Of a stretch of 7,439 bases of DNA, positions 1-7,439 are shown in pieces. The stretch is taken from assembly GCA_021781255.1 (NCBI GenBank), contig JAJXXG010000581.1:1-7439 (forward strand), read 5' to 3'. Positions within the stretch are counted from its first letter, which is position 1. Each line of letters begins with the position of its first letter. Both the position numbers and the translations under genes were made by a program. The notes below the pieces were generated by a model that was not told the DNA's origin, made no database searches, and saw only the letters and a list, made by a program, of their open reading frames with translations. The stretch is from Acidobacteriota bacterium. Its GTDB lineage: Bacteria; Acidobacteriota; Terriglobia; Terriglobales; Acidobacteriaceae.

Positions 1-1036
1 GGCCACGCGCGCGGTCATAGTCGATGGCGCGCGGGTGCTCCGGGTAAAGCTCGCGTGTGTACTTGACGCGGACCAGCTCACGCATCACCGCGAACATATT
101 TACGTCTCCTTCATCGATAAAGCCCTCGTCATATTTCACATATGGCTTCATCACATGCGGGTTCCGGTAATGCATGTGATTGATGCGATCGCGGCTGCCG
201 AAGTACCGGCACACGGCCACCGGATCTTCTCCCATCTCGCGCGTCACGCCGCAGTCAAACGTAATTCCGTTCGATGGGCTGTCCACGATCTCGATCAGGT
301 GCTTCCATCCAGCGAGCGTTGCCATGATCTGCTGCGAACCGCGACTCAACGGAAACGGCGGGTCGTTGGGATGAAGCGCCAGCCGCACATTCGCCTTCTC
401 CGCTACCGGAATTACAGCCTTGAGAAAGTAGGTGATGTTGGCCCACATCTCATCGAGCGTGTTCTTTCCCTCCTCGGCGAGCGGCGGAAGGTCTTTCATG
501 CGGTCGTAGTCCACGCCTGTCAGCCCGGCGCCCCCACGGCCGACCTCCTCGTAGTAGCCTTCCATAGCGCGATGCGCATAAAAGTTGTACTCAACGACCG
601 GAATGCCTGCCTGGCCCGCCGCTTGTATCGATTGGCGAATCTTGTCGATTTCTTCATCCCGGCCGCGGTGCCCATAGAGCGTGTTCGGGAAGCCGTCAAT
701 CATCAGGTTGCCCAGCGTCACGCCGTCGGCCTTGAGCTTGTCCACGAGCGGCTGAGTCTGGCTGACGGTCCAGGGTATTGGCGGCCCGCCGGACAATACG
801 TGATACACGCCGAGTTCAACAACGCTGCGAATCGCCTCGTCTGTGACCCCATTGCTCAGGTCGATTGCGCAGGAAATCTTCGGCGTGCCTGCGCTCTCCT
901 GCGGCATGCCATCGCCCAGCCACCAGGGTTTCTTCTCCTGCTGCGCAGCGCCCGCCAGGGGCAGCATTGCGGGAGCCAATGCCGCGGCTCCCATACCTTT
1001 CATGAGGCTGCGGCGAGAAATGCTGGATTTCATCAT
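1..1036 (-). CDS. UxuA-type mannonate dehydratase family protein with Tat signal, 3' end beyond window
   Basis: Family role: UxuA removes water from D-mannonate to give 2-keto-3-deoxy-D-gluconate, in a metal-dependent TIM barrel. Seen: 345 codons are open from the start to the window edge. Residues 1-31 are a Tat signal (SRRSLMKG at 7-14, then a hydrophobic Ala-rich stretch). The family block HPNDPP is at 222-227, after an aligned stretch KAVIPVAEKANVRLAL; FDCG is at 260-263, NHMHYRN at 286-292 and EGDVNMF at 309-315. H222, C262 and H287 or H289 fit the family's His/Cys/His metal ligands. The usual RPDHG near the C-terminus appears as YPEHP (E333), so Glu seems to replace the ligand Asp. The start at 1036 has AGAGGA six bases upstream; the next codon is also ATG (1033) and could be used instead. 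It is divergent from the enolase gene at 1268. Export of a UxuA protein is unusual. The family call is firm; the substrate is inferred. Confidence 0.85.
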   Translation of the reverse strand, partial: MMKSSISRRSLMKGMGAAALAPAMLPLAGAAQQEKKPWWLGDGMPQESAGTPKISCAIDLSNGVTDEAIRSVVELGVYHVLSGGPPIPWTVSQTQPLVDKLKADGVTLGNLMIDGFPNTLYGHRGRDEEIDKIRQSIQAAGQAGIPVVEYNFYAHRAMEGYYEEVGRGGAGLTGVDYDRMKDLPPLAEEGKNTLDEMWANITYFLKAVIPVAEKANVRLALHPNDPPFPLSRGSQQIMATLAGWKHLIEIVDSPSNGITFDCGVTREMGEDPVAVCRYFGSRDRINHMHYRNPHVMKPYVKYDEGFIDEGDVNMFAVMRELVRVKYTRELYPEHPRAIDYDRARG

Positions 1037-1267
1037 TGAGCATCCTCTTGAAAATGAATCTGCCGCGCTGACCGCATGGAATGGCCTGCGCAGCGTAGTG
1101 GGCCGGTTCGCTGCCAGCCGGCAGCAACCATCAATGACCACGGCACGCATTCTTCCACATGCCTGTCCGCCTCGTCCACAGAATCACATCGCGTGACTGG
1201 GCAAAGCCCGCGGACACAGGAGTAAGATGGGACTTCGAAATTCTTCCCCTGGAGGGGATCCGCCGAA
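1037..1267. promoter_or_regulatory. Divergent intergenic region between two sugar-acid dehydratase genes
   Basis: These 231 bp lie between the starts of two divergent genes and must hold both promoters if each gene is first in its unit. I see no convincing -35/-10 pair. Two inverted repeats are visible. GCTGCC (1110-1115) and GGCAGC (1120-1125) flank a 4-base loop. TGTCCGC (1164-1170) and GCGGACA (1210-1216) are 39 bp apart and enclose a small GGGC-AAA-GCCC hairpin (1199-1209). GGAGG at 1251-1255, 12 bases before the ATG at 1268, is the likely ribosome site of the rightward gene. No credible small gene was found here. Confidence 0.5.
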
Positions 1268-2635
1268 ATGCCCGATGAAACGTGCTTCCGCTCGAACCGC
1301 CGCAGCATTCTGAAATCTTCACTTGCCTTACTCGCCGGTGGGGCTGTCGGACAAGTCGCAAAGGCTGAACCGGAAATCAAGAATGTGAATCCCGCCTCCA
1401 GTCCGTCGAGCCTCAAGATTACCGACATGCGCTATGCAGTCATCGTCAAGCCGGGTCCGAGTCCGTGCGTGCTGATCCGCATCGACACCAACCATGGCGT
1501 CTCTGGCCTGGGCGAGGTGCGCGATGTCGCAGGCCCGCAATACGCAATGGTGCTCAAGAGCCGCCTGCTTGGTGAGAATCCCCTGCGCATCGACTATCTG
1601 TTTCAGAAAATCGCCCAGTTCGGCGGCGGAGCGCGTCAGGCTGGCGGCGTCTGCGCCGTCGAAATGGCCCTGTGGGACATCGCGGGCAAGGTCTACAACA
1701 TTCCCGTCTATCAGATGCTCGGTGGCAAATGGCGCGATGAGATTCGCATCTACGCCGACACAACCGAATCCATGGATCCCGCCGAGTACGGCCGCCGCGC
1801 AAAAGAGCGCAAGCAGATGGGGCTCACGTGGGTGAAGATGGACCTCGGCATCAACGTCCTAGAAGGCATACCGGGCACGGTGATGCAGCCGGCAGGCATG
1901 AGCAAGTGGGAGCTGCGCGACCAGCCGCATCCTTTCATCGCCACGGAAGTGACCGACAAAGGCATCGACCGGCTCTGCGAGTATGTGGCTGCCGTGCGCG
2001 ACAACATCGGCTATGACATGCCGCTCTCAATGGATCACCTCGGCCACATCGGCGTGAAGTCGGCCATCCGCCTCGGCAAGGCTTACGAGAAGTTCAATCT
2101 GGAATGGATCGAGGATGTGATTCCCTGGTACTACACGGACTTGCTCAAAGAAATCACCCAGGAAAGCCCAACGCCCACTCTCACTGGCGAGGACATCTAC
2201 AAGTTTGAAGATTTCGAGACCCTGTGCAAAGAGCACGCAGTCGACAAAATTCATCCCGACCTAGCGACTTCCGGCGGAATCCTGCAGACGCATCGCATCG
2301 GCGACATGGCCTTCCGCTACGGCGTTCCCATGGCAATGCACTTTGCAGGCACGCCCGTCAGTTGCATGGCCAATGTGCACTGCGCTGCCGCCACGCGCAA
2401 CTTCCTCGCGCTTGAGAACCACTCGCTCGACGTGCCCTTCTGGCAGGACCTTGTGACCGGCATCGAAAAGCCCATCGTCAACAAGGGTTATATCAAGGTG
2501 CCCGATACGCCGGGCCTGGGCATCACGCTGAATGACGACGAACTCAAGCGTCACCTGAAGCCCGGCACAGGCTACTTTGAACCCACGCCAATGTGGAACG
2601 AAGTACAGTCATGGGATGATGCGCTCTTCAGTTGA
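1268..2635 (+). CDS. Mandelate racemase-subgroup enolase superfamily protein (acid-sugar dehydratase-like), Tat-exported
   Basis: The protein has 455 residues. It starts with a Tat signal (NRRSILK at 10-16, hydrophobic 17-30, likely cleavage after AKA at 33), then an enolase-type capping domain (about 50-160) and a barrel. Visible active-site residues are KMD at 190-192, metal ligands D256, E282 and E308, the D331/H358 dyad, and E383. The intervals 26-26-50-25 match those I recall for D-galactonate dehydratase (D183, E209, E235, H285, E310), so a metal-dependent proton-abstraction fold is well supported. In that enzyme a His two residues after the first Asp acts as acid; here the motif reads DHLGH, so that place is Leu258, with His257 and His260 beside it. 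The second Lys of a racemase KxK motif is Asp192. The reaction may therefore be dehydration of an unidentified sugar acid, or something else. The stop lies 8 bp from the stop of the convergent ManD gene. Family sure, substrate unknown. Confidence 0.88.
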   Translation: MPDETCFRSNRRSILKSSLALLAGGAVGQVAKAEPEIKNVNPASSPSSLKITDMRYAVIVKPGPSPCVLIRIDTNHGVSGLGEVRDVAGPQYAMVLKSRLLGENPLRIDYLFQKIAQFGGGARQAGGVCAVEMALWDIAGKVYNIPVYQMLGGKWRDEIRIYADTTESMDPAEYGRRAKERKQMGLTWVKMDLGINVLEGIPGTVMQPAGMSKWELRDQPHPFIATEVTDKGIDRLCEYVAAVRDNIGYDMPLSMDHLGHIGVKSAIRLGKAYEKFNLEWIEDVIPWYYTDLLKEITQESPTPTLTGEDIYKFEDFETLCKEHAVDKIHPDLATSGGILQTHRIGDMAFRYGVPMAMHFAGTPVSCMANVHCAAATRNFLALENHSLDVPFWQDLVTGIEKPIVNKGYIKVPDTPGLGITLNDDELKRHLKPGTGYFEPTPMWNEVQSWDDALFS

Positions 2636-2643
2636 GCCCGCCG

Positions 2644-3978
2644 TCACTGCTTGATCACCGTACCGTCCCGCAGCCGAATCTCGCCCCAGCCGCCGTTGAG
2701 CGGGCTCGCGGTGAACGGAGCTTTGGCTGCTTCTTTCTCGTCAATCTCAATGCCCCATCCCGGCTTTTTACTTGCCCAGAGATAGCCGTCCCGCATCTCC
2801 GGACAGCCCTGAAAAATCGCCTGCGTTCGCTCGTTGAACGGCGAATACTCCTGAATCCCAAAGTTATAACTGACAAGGTCCAGAGTTACATTGGCCATGT
2901 GACCAACCGGCGAAACATCGCCTGGCCCGTGCCATGCCGTCTTCACGCCGAACTGCTCGGCAAGAATCGCGATCTTACGTGCGGGGCTGAATCCGCCTGC
3001 CTGCGATACATGCACGCGGATGTAGTCGATCAGCTGCCCTGTGATCAAAGGCTGCCACTCATGCGGGCTGTTGAACAGTTCGCCCATCGCAATCGGCGTG
3101 GCACAGTTCTCGCGTATCTGCCGGAAGTATCCGAGATCTTCGGGAGAGAGCGGGTCCTCAAGAAAAAACATCCTGTACTGTTCAGCCTGCTTGCAGAACT
3201 GTACAGCCTCGTTCGGTGTCAGCCGCTCATGCATGTCATGCAACAGCTCAACTTCATCGCCGAGCTCGCGACGGCAAATCTCCAGCAGCTTCAGTGCGCG
3301 CCGCGACTGGGCCGCGGGGTCAAAGAGCGGCTTGTCATGGAGCGCCTTCGGCCTGCCTGCATCCTTGTGCTGCGAGCCATACCCTGCCATTCCCGGCAGT
3401 CCCACCTGAACCCGCACATGCCGAAACCCCTGCGCCATATATTTCCTTGCTTCTTCAACCACGTCCTCAAACTCGGCTCCGCTTGCGTGCGCATAACAAT
3501 CGGCAGCCTCGCGGCACTTGCCGCCCGCGAGCTGGTAGACGGGCATCCCGGCCTGGCGTCCCTTGATGTCCCATAGCGCCTGATCGATGCCGCTGATCGC
3601 ATTGTTCAGCACCGGCCCGTTCTTCCAATACGAGCTGTCGTAGCAGGATTGCCAGATGTCCTCAATGCGGTCCGTCGTCTTGCCCAGCAGAAACGGCTTC
3701 AAATATTTCTCCACCGCAGGCTTCACCAGGTCCGCTCGCTGCGTGAACGTTGCGCAGCCGTATCCGTAGAGACCGTCCTGATCCGTGGTGATCTTGACCA
3801 CGGTCAAGCGCGCGCCGTCCGGTTCGCACTCAATCACGCTGATGTCTTTGATGCGCGGAGTCGGCGTTCCTCGCGTTGCGCGCGCCACCTGCGCTTCTGC
3901 CTCAACAAGGCGCGGAGCCAGGGCAAGCGCCCCCGCTCCAGCAAAAGTCTTCATGAAATCACGGCGTTCAATGGGCAT
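2644..3978 (-). CDS. ManD/RspA-type D-mannonate (or D-gluconate) dehydratase, Tat-exported
   Basis: The protein has 444 residues and belongs to the ManD subgroup of the enolase superfamily, which dehydrates D-mannonate and in some members D-gluconate to 2-keto-3-deoxy-D-gluconate. A Tat signal covers residues 1-29 (ERRDFMK at 4-10, cleavage near VEAEA). The barrel motifs are D248 and H250 (HDMHERLTP), E274 (FFLEDPL), E300 (MGELFN), R321, H350 (WHGPGD) and E377 (GIQE). These sit exactly 38 residues after the D210, H212, E236, E262, R283, H312 and E339 I recall for characterised ManD. The loop Arg and Tyr are likely R189 and Y200. The C-terminal RLRDGT is also family-like. Pro352 falls at ManD position 314, where, as I recall, Pro goes with low-efficiency or gluconate-active members and Ala with efficient mannonate dehydratases. 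The nearest ribosome site is weak (AGG, seven bases before ATG). It is the last gene of the leftward set, with a 262-bp spacer in front that may hold its own promoter. Confidence 0.93.
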   Translation of the reverse strand: MPIERRDFMKTFAGAGALALAPRLVEAEAQVARATRGTPTPRIKDISVIECEPDGARLTVVKITTDQDGLYGYGCATFTQRADLVKPAVEKYLKPFLLGKTTDRIEDIWQSCYDSSYWKNGPVLNNAISGIDQALWDIKGRQAGMPVYQLAGGKCREAADCYAHASGAEFEDVVEEARKYMAQGFRHVRVQVGLPGMAGYGSQHKDAGRPKALHDKPLFDPAAQSRRALKLLEICRRELGDEVELLHDMHERLTPNEAVQFCKQAEQYRMFFLEDPLSPEDLGYFRQIRENCATPIAMGELFNSPHEWQPLITGQLIDYIRVHVSQAGGFSPARKIAILAEQFGVKTAWHGPGDVSPVGHMANVTLDLVSYNFGIQEYSPFNERTQAIFQGCPEMRDGYLWASKKPGWGIEIDEKEAAKAPFTASPLNGGWGEIRLRDGTVIKQ

Positions 3979-4034
3979 TGCCAGGCCTCACTCTTCTTGG
4001 ATTGCGCAGAATTTTTCGACACAGCAGAAACGCA

Positions 4035-4040
4035 ATTCTA
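4035..4040 (-). promoter_or_regulatory. Candidate -10 hexamer for the ManD gene
   Basis: On the minus strand this reads TAGAAT, one base off the TATAAT consensus, about 57 bp upstream of the ManD start. The -35 position is poor. The palindrome at 4068-4083 would sit near or just upstream of a -35 element, where a regulator could act. This is a guess from one hexamer. Confidence 0.25.
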
Positions 4041-4067
4041 CCCCTCGAACGCAACGGAGCGCATCCT

Positions 4068-4083
4068 GCGAAGATGTCTTCGC
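4068..4083. promoter_or_regulatory. 16-nt palindrome, possible operator of the ManD gene
   Basis: GCGAAGA (4068-4074) and TCTTCGC (4077-4083) are perfect inverted arms around a 2-base centre. Size and symmetry suit a dimeric regulator such as a LacI- or GntR-type protein, and the site is 90-105 bp upstream of the ManD start. It does not match the ExuR/UxuR-type site I know, and no regulator gene is in the window. Confidence 0.35.
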
Positions 4084-4140
4084 TGTCTCTTGAATTTCAG
4101 CGGAATGCACGGCGTCCCATCACCGGCAATACAAATGGAA

Positions 4141-4182
4141 AGCCGGCAATCCCGCGAAGATAAATACGCGAAACTGCCGGCT
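4141..4182 (-). terminator. Symmetrical interrupted hairpin after the DUF362 gene, possible terminator or attenuator
   Basis: The outer arms AGCCGGCA (4141-4148) and TGCCGGCT (4175-4182) pair over 8 bp. Inside, 4-base internal loops on each side lead to an inner CGCG/CGCG stem (4153-4156 and 4167-4170) closed by a 10-base A/T-rich loop. Read leftward it begins 59 bp after the DUF362 stop and is followed by an interrupted T-rich run (TTCCATTTGTATT), weaker than a classic terminator tail. It could terminate the permease-DUF362 transcript or act as a leader structure for the ManD gene. Confidence 0.35.
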
Positions 4183-4240
4183 ATGGTGTACCGCTTCCTC
4201 AATGCCGGCCAGACGAAAGCTCGTTCGCCTGATCGCAAGG

Positions 4241-5410
4241 CTAGGTCGTCAGTTGCGTGAGCGTCGGGAACCGATACCGCGCCTTCGAAATCGGCGTGCC
4301 TGTCACCTCAATGCGGCTCAGGTCGCGCGATCCAACGCCCAGATGCTCAGCCAGCCGCAGCGTGCTGTCGCACGTCTCAAACGGCGCGGACCCGCGGTCC
4401 GCCATCGGGTCAAATCCCATCGTGGCCATCGCCACCGCATCCGTTGAGACGCAGTTCATGCCCGCGATCAGCAGCCCGGGATGAACGGGCTTATGAATCC
4501 AATTGCGCTCCTGATTCGGCAGCTCGCCGCCCGTCATCGTATAAATTCCGTCAATCACGGCCAGGTGAATCGGTCGGGCCGCCACCAGGTCAGCCGTAAT
4601 GCGCGGCACGCGAAAGCCGGGGTCTTTCGATTCGGCCACAGGCTGCGGCGCGCTCTTCGGCGGCACCCGCGATCCAGAGTGCATCGGCCCACGGTATCCC
4701 ACCGGCACGATGCTCGGCTCATCCTCGGGAGCCTCCTGGCTATAAATCGTGCAGGGCGTGATGCCGAAACAGTTCTTCATCGAGAGCGTAACGCCGGCGG
4801 TCCTGTGTTCTTTCAGCTTCGCGAGCGATACAAACACGTCCGTGTCCTCATACGAGTGGTTCAGATCGTAGCCCGCATACATCAACCCTCCGCCCGGCAC
4901 CATGAATCGTGCATACTTCTTTCCGCTGCCGAGAAAGTTGGTGTTCTCGAATTCCACGTGGTTCGCCGCACTCGCAAAATCCTGCGGCCGCCAACCGGCG
5001 GAGATCATAAACTCCTCCAGAGGCTTGGTCCCCACCGGCGCGCTCTCCAGCAGCCGGATTCGCCGCGCTCCCGCCTTGCCCAGCAGCGAGACCAGTGACC
5101 CAATCACCTGCGGGTGGACCCAGTGCGTCATCTGGTTCGGCATGGAGTTCAGCTTGTCGCTCGGCGGCCCTGTCATGTTCAGCTTGATGGCCACCGTCTT
5201 GCCCTGCACCAGTTTCTGCAGCCCGCCAAGCTGGTCAAACATGGTCGAAAGCACGTCCGACACTTGCTTGTTGTATTCCGGGCACACACCGATGGCCACG
5301 CGACCCGCAGGCGCCTTCATGGTGGTTGCAAAAGCGGGCTGCGCCAGGGCAGCTCCGGCTGCCATTCCCATGGCGCCAAGAAACTCCCTGCGCGAATAAT
5401 CCATCTTCAT
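4241..5410 (-). CDS. DUF362 domain protein with Tat signal, function unknown
   Basis: The protein has 389 residues. Residues 1-28 are a canonical Tat signal (SRREFLG at 6-12, hydrophobic Ala/Gly stretch, cleavage near ALA 23 or AFA 28). The DUF362 hallmarks are VAIKLNMTGPP at 73-83, THWVHPQVIGSLVSLL at 95-110, an Ala/Gly-Arg strand IRLLES at 118-123, the block AKLKEHRTAGVTLSMKNCFG at 197-216, HLAVIDGIYTMTGG at 282-295 and STDAVA at 322-327. No ferredoxin-type CxxCxxC cluster is present, although some DUF362 proteins have one; the five cysteines (43, 214, 219, 320, 347) are scattered. The biochemical role of this family is not established. GGAGG ten bases before the ATG at 5410 supports that start; a second ATG two codons later is less well placed. 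It follows the permease gene by 61 bp on the same strand, so the two are probably cotranscribed, which hints at a role in sugar-acid use. Family confident, function open. Confidence 0.88.
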   Translation of the reverse strand: MKMDYSRREFLGAMGMAAGAALAQPAFATTMKAPAGRVAIGVCPEYNKQVSDVLSTMFDQLGGLQKLVQGKTVAIKLNMTGPPSDKLNSMPNQMTHWVHPQVIGSLVSLLGKAGARRIRLLESAPVGTKPLEEFMISAGWRPQDFASAANHVEFENTNFLGSGKKYARFMVPGGGLMYAGYDLNHSYEDTDVFVSLAKLKEHRTAGVTLSMKNCFGITPCTIYSQEAPEDEPSIVPVGYRGPMHSGSRVPPKSAPQPVAESKDPGFRVPRITADLVAARPIHLAVIDGIYTMTGGELPNQERNWIHKPVHPGLLIAGMNCVSTDAVAMATMGFDPMADRGSAPFETCDSTLRLAEHLGVGSRDLSRIEVTGTPISKARYRFPTLTQLTT

Positions 5411-5471: not shown

Positions 5472-6803
5472 TTATCCGCCGCCTGCCGGTGCTGGCTCGT
5501 TGTTTGCCGTGGCGCGAGAGCTTGCGGCGAACGGGCGTCCCGGGTCCACCATCAGCCACAGCAGCCCGCCCAGCGCTGCAAGCGTCGCTGCAAAAATAAA
5601 CGCGAAGTTCCATCCGTACCGGCCTGCCAGATAAGGCGTAAGAGATGCGGTGACTGCCCCGCCCATCTGCCCGCCCATGTTCATCACGCCGGAGACCACG
5701 CCCGACCGCTCGCCAAAAATGTCCGCGCTCACCGCCCAGAACGAACTCTGCGACAGATACAGCGCGCCTGCGCCGCCTGCCAGAATCACGCTCGCCGCGT
5801 AGGGGCCCTGCACGTGCGAGCCGACCACAAGGAACACGCCCGTAAGCAGCAGCGAGACCACCGCAATGCCGCAGCGCCCGCGACGCAGCCCAAGCCTTTT
5901 TGAGAGCGCGTCGCTCACGGCGCCGCCCACCAGGCAACAAACCGTCATGGCCAGAAATGGAATCATGGAAAAGAACGAGTTGGCCTTCATGTTCAGGCCG
6001 CGCACCTGCGCCAGATAGATGAAGAACCAGCTGAAGAAAATCCACGCCACATAGCCAAAGCTGAAGTAGCTCAGCGTAAGAGCCGCCACATTCAGATTCA
6101 GGAGCGTGGCGCGCCACGGAACAGGCTTGTCCGAGCGGTGCGTTCCCTCCGCCGAGCGCGTGGCCTGGATAAGCGTCAGTTCTTCCGGGGAGATATGCGG
6201 ATGCTGTTCCGGCAGGTCGCGCGCCATCGCGTACCAGGCGAGCCCGGCTGCAATGCCCGCCAACGCGCTTAACCAGAACGAAGCTCGCCAGCCGTAGTGG
6301 CTGATGATCCAGGTCAGAACAGGAATGCTCACTCCCGCGCCCGCGCCAACACCGGCAAAAATCCAGCCATTCGCGCGGCCCCGCTCAGCAACGGGAATCC
6401 ACTGGGATACAAACTGATTGGAAGCCGGATATATCACAGCTTCTCCCGCGCCAAGCGAGAAACGAATCAGAAGCAGCAGCAGAAGCGCGTGCCCCAGCCT
6501 CGGATACGCCATGGTTGTGAGCACTGTAAATACACCCCACCACAGCACCCCTGCGGCAAGCACGCGGCGCGGTCCATAGCGGCCGGCCATCCAGCCCCCG
6601 GGAATCTGAAAGGCGGCATAGCCCAGCAGAAATGCGCTGAAGATCCATCCCAGTTGAACGTTGCTGATGCCCAGCTCGTCGCGAAGCAACGCGCCCGCAA
6701 TCGCGATGTTGGTGCGATCCAGATACGCGATGGCGCTCAGCACGAAAAGCCAGACAACCAGAAAACTTCGCACCTGCAAGCGCTGCGTCAGAGCCATCCT
6801 CAT
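5472..6803 (-). CDS. MFS permease, anion:cation symporter type (hexuronate/aldonate transporter-like)
   Basis: The protein has 443 residues with the usual 12-helix MFS layout: six hydrophobic segments, a charged central loop (about 195-232), then six more. Family marks are YLDRTNIAIA at 27-36, the loop-2/3 signature GGWMAGRYGPRR at 69-80, RFSLGAGEAVIYPA at 114-127 and QWIPVAERGRANG at 134-146. These resemble the ACS group that includes ExuT, GudP and DgoT, proton-coupled importers of hexuronates, aldarates and galactonate. The C-terminus ends in a polar Ala/Pro/Gly-rich tail (about 420-443). Helix-bearing segments begin near residue 11 and there is no Tat signal. The start at 6803 has only a weak GAAAGA upstream; an ATG two codons in (6797) is a possible alternative. 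It is first in the leftward set, so it likely carries the promoter for itself and DUF362. Substrate is inferred from the dehydratases around it: a sugar acid or a keto-deoxy acid. Confidence 0.9.
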   Translation of the reverse strand: MRMALTQRLQVRSFLVVWLFVLSAIAYLDRTNIAIAGALLRDELGISNVQLGWIFSAFLLGYAAFQIPGGWMAGRYGPRRVLAAGVLWWGVFTVLTTMAYPRLGHALLLLLLIRFSLGAGEAVIYPASNQFVSQWIPVAERGRANGWIFAGVGAGAGVSIPVLTWIISHYGWRASFWLSALAGIAAGLAWYAMARDLPEQHPHISPEELTLIQATRSAEGTHRSDKPVPWRATLLNLNVAALTLSYFSFGYVAWIFFSWFFIYLAQVRGLNMKANSFFSMIPFLAMTVCCLVGGAVSDALSKRLGLRRGRCGIAVVSLLLTGVFLVVGSHVQGPYAASVILAGGAGALYLSQSSFWAVSADIFGERSGVVSGVMNMGGQMGGAVTASLTPYLAGRYGWNFAFIFAATLAALGGLLWLMVDPGRPFAASSRATANNEPAPAGGG

Positions 6804-7075: not shown

Positions 7076-7339
7076 CTACTGCGGGCCGCGGAAGCAGATC
7101 GTCTCGCCGTCCAGCCGGTATTCGGCTGAGCAGTTCTCGCCGCCGCAGATCATCGTTTCGCCGCCGCATAGCTGGCGGCGCGTGATGAGCCCCAGCGTGC
7201 CGCAGCGCGGGCAAGACATCACTGCCACGTAGGGATTCTCCACCTGACCCAGCTTGGCCTGGTTTTCCAGCACAAAGACTGTTCCGGGGTCCATTCTCTC
7301 GGGGATCCATTCTTCCAGAAACTGCAGGTCGGCTGGCAT
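7076..7339 (-). CDS. Small zinc-ribbon-like protein of unknown function
   Basis: With the start at 7339 the product has 87 residues. An acidic, hydrophobic N-terminal part (LQFLEEWIPERMDPGTVFVLEN) precedes a Cys-rich C-terminal half: CPRCG at 43-47, then C58, C65, C70 (CGGENC at 65-70) and C82. CxxC followed by CxxxxC suggests a four-Cys metal site of zinc-ribbon type, though the 4-residue gap in the second pair is unusual. The start was chosen because GGAGG lies five bases upstream; an earlier in-frame ATG at 7375 (99 residues) has only a distant AGAGGGG, and the frame stays open to the window edge. No signal peptide is visible, so it is probably cytoplasmic. It is on the same strand as the permease but 272 bp away and shows no link to sugar-acid use. 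The gene is not recognised; a nucleic-acid or protein-binding role is only a possibility. Confidence 0.65.
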   Translation of the reverse strand: MPADLQFLEEWIPERMDPGTVFVLENQAKLGQVENPYVAVMSCPRCGTLGLITRRQLCGGETMICGGENCSAEYRLDGETICFRGPQ

Positions 7340-7344
7340 CCTTC

Positions 7345-7349
7345 CCTCC
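7345..7349 (-). promoter_or_regulatory. Ribosome binding site deciding the start of the small zinc-ribbon gene
   Basis: On the minus strand GGAGG lies five bases before the ATG at 7339. It is far better placed than anything before the upstream in-frame ATG at 7375, and so favours the shorter product. Confidence 0.6.
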
Positions 7350-7439
7350 GTGGGGTTAAGGTGGCGGAGCAGCATCTCGCATTCGCCGCCCCTCTGTCGC
7401 GCAACTTCACCAGGCTGCGAATGGCTCGCCGCAGGCCGC
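7350..7439. other. Window edge upstream of the zinc-ribbon gene
   Basis: Two minus-strand frames stay open across this 90-bp edge, one of them in frame with the zinc-ribbon gene. Either an upstream gene ends here or the small protein is longer at its N-terminus. The stretch is too short to decide. Confidence 0.25.

What the first reader, a model, noticed from the sequence alone, without database searches (positions are those of the whole stretch)
1..5410. Four neighbouring Tat-tagged proteins point to sugar-acid dehydration outside the cytoplasm
Seen: the UxuA-type, MR-type and ManD-type enzymes and DUF362 all begin with a twin-arginine motif, a hydrophobic stretch and an AxA-like cleavage site, and an ACS-type MFS permease is adjacent. 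Known: UxuA, ManD and DgoD pathways are described as cytoplasmic. Inferred: aldonates are dehydrated to keto-deoxy acids in the periplasm, then taken up by the permease. That would be a periplasmic counterpart of the hexuronate pathway. Tat suits proteins that fold around a metal before export.
Basis: partly seen in the sequence, partly recalled or inferred. Interest (0 to 1): 0.75.

Follow-up and report, generated by a model that had tools for sequence, protein, structure and literature searches.

The report
Exported sugar-acid dehydratase gene cluster
A soil acidobacterium seems to send a set of sugar-acid-processing enzymes, normally found inside cells, out through its inner membrane already folded, so that part of sugar-acid breakdown may happen before uptake.

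Summary
Three enzymes of sugar-acid dehydratase families (A UxuA-like, B MR-like, C ManD-subgroup) and a DUF362 protein (D) each start with a twin-arginine signal; a DgoT-like permease (E) is adjacent. In relatives the RR pair is invariant wherever the N-terminus is present: A 128/128, B 15/15, C 192/192, D 136/136. A, D, B and C form one co-directional run in a genome only 53-65% identical. C keeps the ManD catalytic set in 99-100% of 201 rows. The inference is partly supported. Relatives add a Sec-type RraA-like aldolase near A (11 of 12 loci), PQQ dehydrogenase, lactonase and, in one complete genome, a KDG-kinase-like gene and KDPG aldolase between B and A. DUF362 is predicted to fold like LarA, whose family includes gluconate/mannonate 2-epimerases; cofactor residues are only partly matched. 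Against: A, B, C and E miss their curated cut-offs; C lies without partners in 56 of 80 loci; two genomes with A and B lack DUF362. Best reading: an exported aldonate-processing module feeding a cytoplasmic KDG route. Export is predicted, not measured.

The parts
2..1036 (-). A: UxuA-like (PF03786) Tat-tagged protein, cut off at its C-terminus by the window edge
   Evidence: full length P0121
944..1036 (-). Tat signal of A (SRRSLMK ... AGA), cleavage site guessed by eye
   Evidence: PF10518 20.5 of 22.7 bits; RR 128/128
1268..2635 (+). B: MR_MLE-family (DgoD/ManD-like) Tat-tagged protein, divergent from A
1268..1366 (+). Tat signal of B (NRRSILK ... AKA), cleavage site guessed by eye
   Evidence: RR 15/15; PF10518 E 0.03
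2644..3978 (-). C: ManD-subgroup enolase-superfamily Tat-tagged protein, catalytic residues intact
3898..3978 (-). Tat signal of C (ERRDFMK ... VEA), cleavage site guessed by eye
   Evidence: PF10518 20.1 of 22.7 bits; RR 192/192
4241..5410 (-). D: DUF362 (PF04015) Tat-tagged protein with a LarA-like predicted fold
5327..5410 (-). Tat signal of D (SRREFLG ... AFA), cleavage site guessed by eye
   Evidence: TIGR01409 14.5 of 16.7 bits; RR 136/136
5472..6803 (-). E: MFS permease of the DgoT/sialin type; D29, R30, E121 align with DgoT D46, R47, E133

Best explanation
The window carries most of an exported sugar-acid-processing module of Terracidiphilus-like Acidobacteriota. A, B and C are dehydratase-family enzymes that fold around their metal in the cytoplasm and are exported by Tat; in the periplasm they remove water from aldonate-type sugar acids, giving 2-keto-3-deoxy acids. 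D, exported the same way, is a LarA-fold protein that probably acts on C2 of the same hydroxy acids (for example gluconate/mannonate interconversion); it is an optional part. In relatives a RraA-like class II aldolase with a Sec-type signal sits near A and may cleave part of the keto-deoxy product. The DgoT-like permease E imports the remaining acid by proton symport, and cytoplasmic KDG kinase and KDPG aldolase finish the job. Shown here: the tags and their strict conservation, the active site of C, the predicted fold of D, the gene linkage. Inferred: location, substrates, direction of flow, roles of D and RraA.
For: RR invariant in 471 of 471 residue-bearing rows over four protein sets. TatC in 15/15 genomes. 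A, B, D, E or RraA within the held flank of C in 24 of 80 loci, in shuffled orders; A-D-B-C co-directional and all RR-tagged in L178 at 53-65% identity. C: R189, Y200, D248, H250, E274, E300, H350 at 99-100% in 201 rows and the same in a signal-less ManD of L073. An untagged C homologue (58%, L080) begins about where the mature part begins, so the tag is an added piece. Exported or periplasm-bound neighbours: RraA with a Sec-type signal by eye, PQQ dehydrogenase with cytochrome c domain in one run with A and RraA in L154, PQQ-dehydrogenase homologue beside RraA in L176, RR-tagged lactonase ahead of E, D and C in L007. Complete genome G015: B / IclR / KDG-kinase-like PfkB / KDPG aldolase / A / RraA. 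A and RraA both found in 5 of 297 phylum genomes (A in 9, RraA in 18; 0.55 expected, p 5e-5); without the centre genome G015, 4 of 296 (0.46 expected, p 5e-4).
Against: No localisation data. A, B, C and E all miss their curated cut-offs: A 82 of 199.6 bits, B 192 of 311, C 399 of 550, E 232 of 395; the KDG-kinase-like genes also score under the KDG-kinase cut-offs. In A two of four recalled metal-ligand columns differ from solved UxuA (C to D, D to E). B has DHL where its two best structural hits have DMH and ENH. C stands without A, B, D, E or RraA in 56 of 80 loci, and in 29 of the 46 with at least 5 kb held on both sides. In G015 C lies about 1.6 Mb from A and B, and G015 and G011, which have A, B and RraA, have no DUF362 match. 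E is in 11 of 80 loci. RraA occurs without A in 13 of 18 phylum genomes and A without RraA in 4 of 9. Mature pI shows no exported signature.
Confidence: 0.55

Rival explanations
1. Exported by Tat, but no longer sugar-acid dehydratases: the paralogues have taken up another exported chemistry (cycloisomerase, epimerase or lyase on oxidised, keto- or anhydro-sugars or other acids) within the same folds.
For: A, B and C fall under their equivalog cut-offs; ligand-column changes in A and DHL in B; 3,6-anhydrogalactonate cycloisomerase is among C's structural hits; that enolase-superfamily and UxuA/AP_endonuc_2 folds host many reactions is established knowledge.
Against: C keeps every ManD catalytic residue checked; a KDG-kinase-like gene and KDPG aldolase sit between B and A in a complete genome, and the same two with a signal-less ManD stand with C and D in L073.
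Confidence: 0.27
2. The enzymes work in the cytoplasm; the RR segments are uncleaved tags, and E imports intact aldonates for ordinary cytoplasmic dehydration.
For: The KDG-kinase-like and KDPG aldolase neighbours show no signal by eye; E resembles an aldonate importer.
Against: RR is invariant over four protein sets while the rest of the signal drifts; RraA has a Sec-type signal by eye, and a PQQ dehydrogenase (periplasmic by established knowledge) stands in one run with A in L154; signal-less UxuA-like and ManD paralogues exist in several of the same genomes and in L073.
Confidence: 0.1
3. Unrelated orphan Tat paralogues that happen to be neighbours; no common pathway.
For: These genomes carry many Tat-tagged paralogues; C is often alone and 1.6 Mb from A and B in G015.
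Against: Repeated co-location in reshuffled order, including a run of all four at 53-65% identity, and 11 of 12 A-bearing loci with RraA within 3.6 kb.
Confidence: 0.07

Closest known systems
ManD subgroup of the enolase superfamily (PDB 3t6c, 3tw9, 4ihc nearest to C)
   Same: Same families; metal ligand and catalytic columns kept
   Different: Tat tag; 399 bits under the 550-bit ManD cut-off; E for H at 251, H for A at 323, W for C at 349 against a signal-less ManD
UxuA D-mannonate dehydratase (PDB 1tz9, 3ban, 4eac)
   Same: PF03786 at 129 bits; two His ligand columns kept
   Different: Tat tag; 82 of 199.6 bits for the equivalog; D for C and E for D at ligand columns (ligand identities recalled)
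DgoD galactonate dehydratase / MR_MLE family
   Same: MR_MLE domains over cut-off; acidic columns and late His in line with 2qq6
   Different: Tat tag; 192 of 311 bits; DHL in place of DMH
DgoT D-galactonate:H+ symporter (6e9n; PMC6532931, passages read)
   Same: D46, R47, E133 counterparts
   Different: 232 of 395 bits for TIGR00893; substrate unknown
LarA superfamily, incl. GntE2 gluconate 2-epimerase 4nar (PMC7583248, passages read) and single-histidine LarA-like 9q3j (PMC12611868, passages read)
   Different: No conserved DxxR at the N-terminal place expected; Tat-tagged; whole-chain TM-scores only 0.29-0.35 by query length in Foldseek
Periplasmic direct oxidation and periplasmic dehydroquinate dehydration in acetic acid bacteria (recalled, no call)
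   Same: Oxidation, and in one case dehydration, before uptake
   Different: Other substrates and families, not Tat-tagged UxuA/ManD/MR enzymes (recalled)

Membership tests
Tat substrates | RR-x-hydrophobic motif, apolar stretch, AxA-like site | tested here: met
Tat substrates | Curated Tat model over its cut-off | tested here: not met
   PF10518 20.5 (A) and 20.1 (C) of 22.7 bits, 14.7 for B; TIGR01409 15.7 (C) and 14.5 (D) of 16.7
Tat substrates | Export and processing in cells | not testable with these tools
   needs fractionation or reporter fusions
ManD (NF043051) | Equivalog score of 550 bits | tested here: not met
   C 399.4 bits; a signal-less ManD in L073 scores 709.5
ManD (NF043051) | Catalytic Arg/Tyr, Asp-x-His, two Glu, late His | tested here: met
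   99-100% in 201 rows; residue roles recalled from NaManD
UxuA (TIGR00695) | Equivalog score of 199.55 bits | tested here: not met
   A 82.1 bits, with its last 35 residues missing in the window
UxuA (TIGR00695) | His, Cys, His, Asp metal ligands (recalled) | tested here: inconclusive
   two His columns kept, C to D and D to E
DgoD (PRK14017) | Equivalog score of 311 bits | tested here: not met
   B 191.5 bits
DgoT / TIGR00893 | Subfamily score of 395 bits | tested here: not met
   E 231.6 bits
DgoT / TIGR00893 | D46, R47, E133 counterparts | tested here: met
LarA superfamily | LarA fold | tested here: met
   on a predicted model, pLDDT 89: Foldseek rows 1-11 and VIA rows 1-12 are LarA family; whole-chain TM-scores are low (0.29-0.35 by query length), 212-231 of 389 residues aligned by VIA
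LarA superfamily | D72/R75, H174, K184 set | tested here: inconclusive
   H202 and K212, invariant in 57 rows, align with the H174 and K184 equivalents, but hhalign probability is 1.1%; no conserved DxxR near the N-terminal place (K76-x-N78 there; a D363-x-x-R366 pair is conserved near the C-terminus)
LarA superfamily | Nickel-pincer cofactor bound | not testable with these tools
   LarC and LarE over cut-off in 16/16 genomes, but so is Lar_N
RraA-like class II aldolase (neighbour, not in window) | PF03737 over cut-off with Arg-Asp motif | tested here: met
   L010 copy 54.6 bits, cut-off 24.5; GIRD in 9 of 9 aligned rows; motif role recalled

The most novel reading that the evidence does not exclude
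A largely complete extracytoplasmic Entner-Doudoroff-like route: PQQ dehydrogenase and lactonase make aldonates, a Tat-exported DUF362 protein of the LarA fold, possibly holding a nickel-pincer-type cofactor, epimerises them at C2, Tat-exported dehydratases make keto-deoxy acids, and a Sec-exported RraA aldolase cleaves these in the periplasm, so that only small products or keto-deoxy acids cross the inner membrane.
Probability: 0.15. Interest if true: 0.87.

Novelty: new variant of a known kind. Interest (0 to 1): 0.62.

Why it matters
Aldonate and uronate dehydration is described as a cytoplasmic step (established knowledge). A conserved exported set would move part of sugar-acid catabolism outside the inner membrane in soil bacteria, would explain why Tat-tagged UxuA-like and enolase-superfamily paralogues exist beside untagged ones, and would give DUF362, a Pfam domain of unknown function, a testable role as an exported hydroxy-acid epimerase.

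Tried and rejected

Papers: searches gave 1, 0, 0, 1, 7 and 4 papers; I saw listings, and passages of PMC7953866 and PMC5673643, and met no report of Tat-exported UxuA/ManD/DgoD-type enzymes. The other listed papers were not opened. (11 papers, 10 listed) was a listing only; (7 papers, 6 listed) one, PMC12611868, was seen in passages. Nine papers hold the word DUF362 (listing); one, PMC11770544, was seen in passages. The library holds open-access papers only.

After checking against the calls I lowered the novel case from 0.18 to 0.15 and the common-pathway estimate from 0.8 to 0.75, because DUF362 is missing in two genomes with A and B and C lies 1.6 Mb from A and B in G015; the orphan rival went from 0.05 to 0.07.
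Full report
What is there. The window is from a Terracidiphilus-like acidobacterium: named proteins close to C are from Terracidiphilus MAGs, and the closest locus is L001, 95-96% identical over B, C, D and F and 92% over E. It carries six genes: A (UxuA-like), B (MR_MLE), C (ManD subgroup), D (DUF362), E (MFS) and F (99 aa, no Pfam match). A and B diverge; C, D and E lie on the minus strand. A loses its last 35 residues at the window edge.

Tags. All four N-termini read as Tat signals. Curated Tat models fall short of their cut-offs (A 20.5 and C 20.1 of 22.7 bits; C 15.7 and D 14.5 of 16.7); 27 of 53 A/B/C members match PF10518 at E<=0.05. My rule gives 1.5% on shuffled N-termini (49 of 3175) and, searched evenly, 53 of 635 on other ORFs against 11/12, 8/13, 59/80 and 12/16 for A, B, C and D. 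The strongest evidence is conservation: at the RR columns, A 128 of 134 rows, B 15 of 15, C 192 of 201 and D 136 of 138 have residues, and all are RR, while the other signal columns average 56-70% identity. The rows are related and not deduplicated. Rows without residues start later; several are plainly miscalled starts, and one, L080 of a Chloroflexi MAG, looks like an untagged enzyme. TatC is in 15 of 15 relatives' genomes tested.

Chemistry. C: its catalytic columns are 99-100% conserved in 201 rows and the same in the signal-less ManD of L073, which scores 709.5 bits for ManD where C scores 399.4 of 550. Its nearest solved relatives are 3t6c, 3tw9 and 4ihc. So C should work like a ManD-subgroup dehydratase but is not filed as ManD. 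A: PF03786 at 129 bits but 82 of 199.6 for UxuA; two His columns are kept, two other ligand columns changed (ligands recalled). B: MR_MLE with acidic columns and late His in line with 2qq6, but DHL where 2qq6 has DMH. E: counterparts of D46, R47 and E133 of DgoT; D46N and E133Q abolish transport and R47 contacts the substrate (PMC6532931, passages).

Neighbourhood in relatives. One scan of genome contigs with C gave 80 loci (127 confirmed, the best 80 kept). At least one of A, B, D, E or RraA lies within the held flank in 24 of 80 (A 12, B 13, D 17, E 11, RraA 13); of 46 loci with at least 5 kb on both sides, 17 have one and 29 have none. So C is often alone, and the module is not universal. 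Where partners occur, order is reshuffled: E-D-C-B-A in L006, C-RraA-E-A-B-D in L010, D-C-UxuA2-RraA-E-A in L014.

The missing partner. A RraA-like protein with a Sec-type signal (judged by eye) is within 3.6 kb of A in 11 of 12 A-bearing loci; the twelfth is a 4.9 kb contig. In the genome of the closest relative, RraA is tail to tail with A, so it probably lies just left of base 1 of the window. In 297 genomes drawn from the phylum, A was found in 9, RraA in 18, both in 5 (0.55 expected; p 5e-5; without the centre genome G015, p 5e-4); 13 of the 18 lack A and 4 of the 9 lack RraA. In L154 A, a PQQ dehydrogenase with cytochrome c domain (best model glucose/quinate/shikimate family, under its cut-off), a secreted protein and RraA are co-directional; in L176 RraA stands next to a homologue of that PQQ dehydrogenase; in L007 a lactonase with an RR start precedes E, D and C.

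Link to the cytoplasm. In complete genome G015 (ZG23-2) the order is B, IclR regulator, KDG-kinase-like PfkB (under the KDG-kinase cut-offs), KDPG aldolase, A, RraA. In L073 a KDG-kinase-like PfkB, KDPG aldolase, an SDR and a signal-less ManD stand with C and D. KDPG aldolase is in 15 of 15 genomes. Signal-less UxuA-like proteins occur in several of the same genomes. Against a fixed set: in G015 C lies about 1.6 Mb from A and B, and neither G015 nor G011, which have A, B and RraA, has a DUF362 match (DUF362 in 6 of 10 genomes tested, one of those being a single weak match, to a protein that looks LarA-like by eye).

Verdict. Tat targeting of the set: very likely (about 0.9). Common pathway: likely (0.75). 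Sugar-acid dehydration outside the cytoplasm as its core: more likely than not (0.55). Uptake of the product by E, and external cleavage by RraA, are open. The finding is a real variant that I did not meet in the papers searched, not a new kind of enzyme.

Noticed in passing
window 7076-7375 (-): F, a 99-aa protein with paired cysteines, 95% conserved in L001, no Pfam or NCBIfam match.
   Followed up: partly
L051, L053, L057, L058, L060-L062, L064, L066, L068, L075, L076: In these loci the Tat-tagged ManD-like gene lies near a conserved set of genes (clusters c6-c13) that look by eye like haem export / cytochrome c maturation genes.
   Followed up: no
L012:11395-12564, L014:11421-12539, L016:10397-11536, L115-L118, L121: At least two further groups of Tat-type UxuA-like proteins exist besides A, with signal-less UxuA-like paralogues (L113, L114, L123, L128, L129) in several of the same genomes.
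   Followed up: partly
G002:C122, G007:C46, G009:C12: DUF362 paralogues not close to D lie 4-7 kb from larC, the nickel-pincer cofactor gene, and larE stands beside larC there.
   Followed up: partly
L037:12458-13534, L029:3569-4674, L036:8786-9895, L067:4507-5499: Protein family without Pfam match (L037 copy tested), in loci of the Tat-tagged ManD-like gene, in L037 also next to a PQQ dehydrogenase.
   Followed up: partly
L153:6216-10109: A signal-less RraA-like protein and an SDR (both recognised by eye) lie near a signal-less UxuA-like protein: a possible cytoplasmic parallel of the A-RraA pair.
   Followed up: no
G014:C1:2367969-2368882: The RraA match in isolate TAA 166 falls into two pieces, and its genome shows a single UxuA match, at 332 bits.
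   Followed up: no
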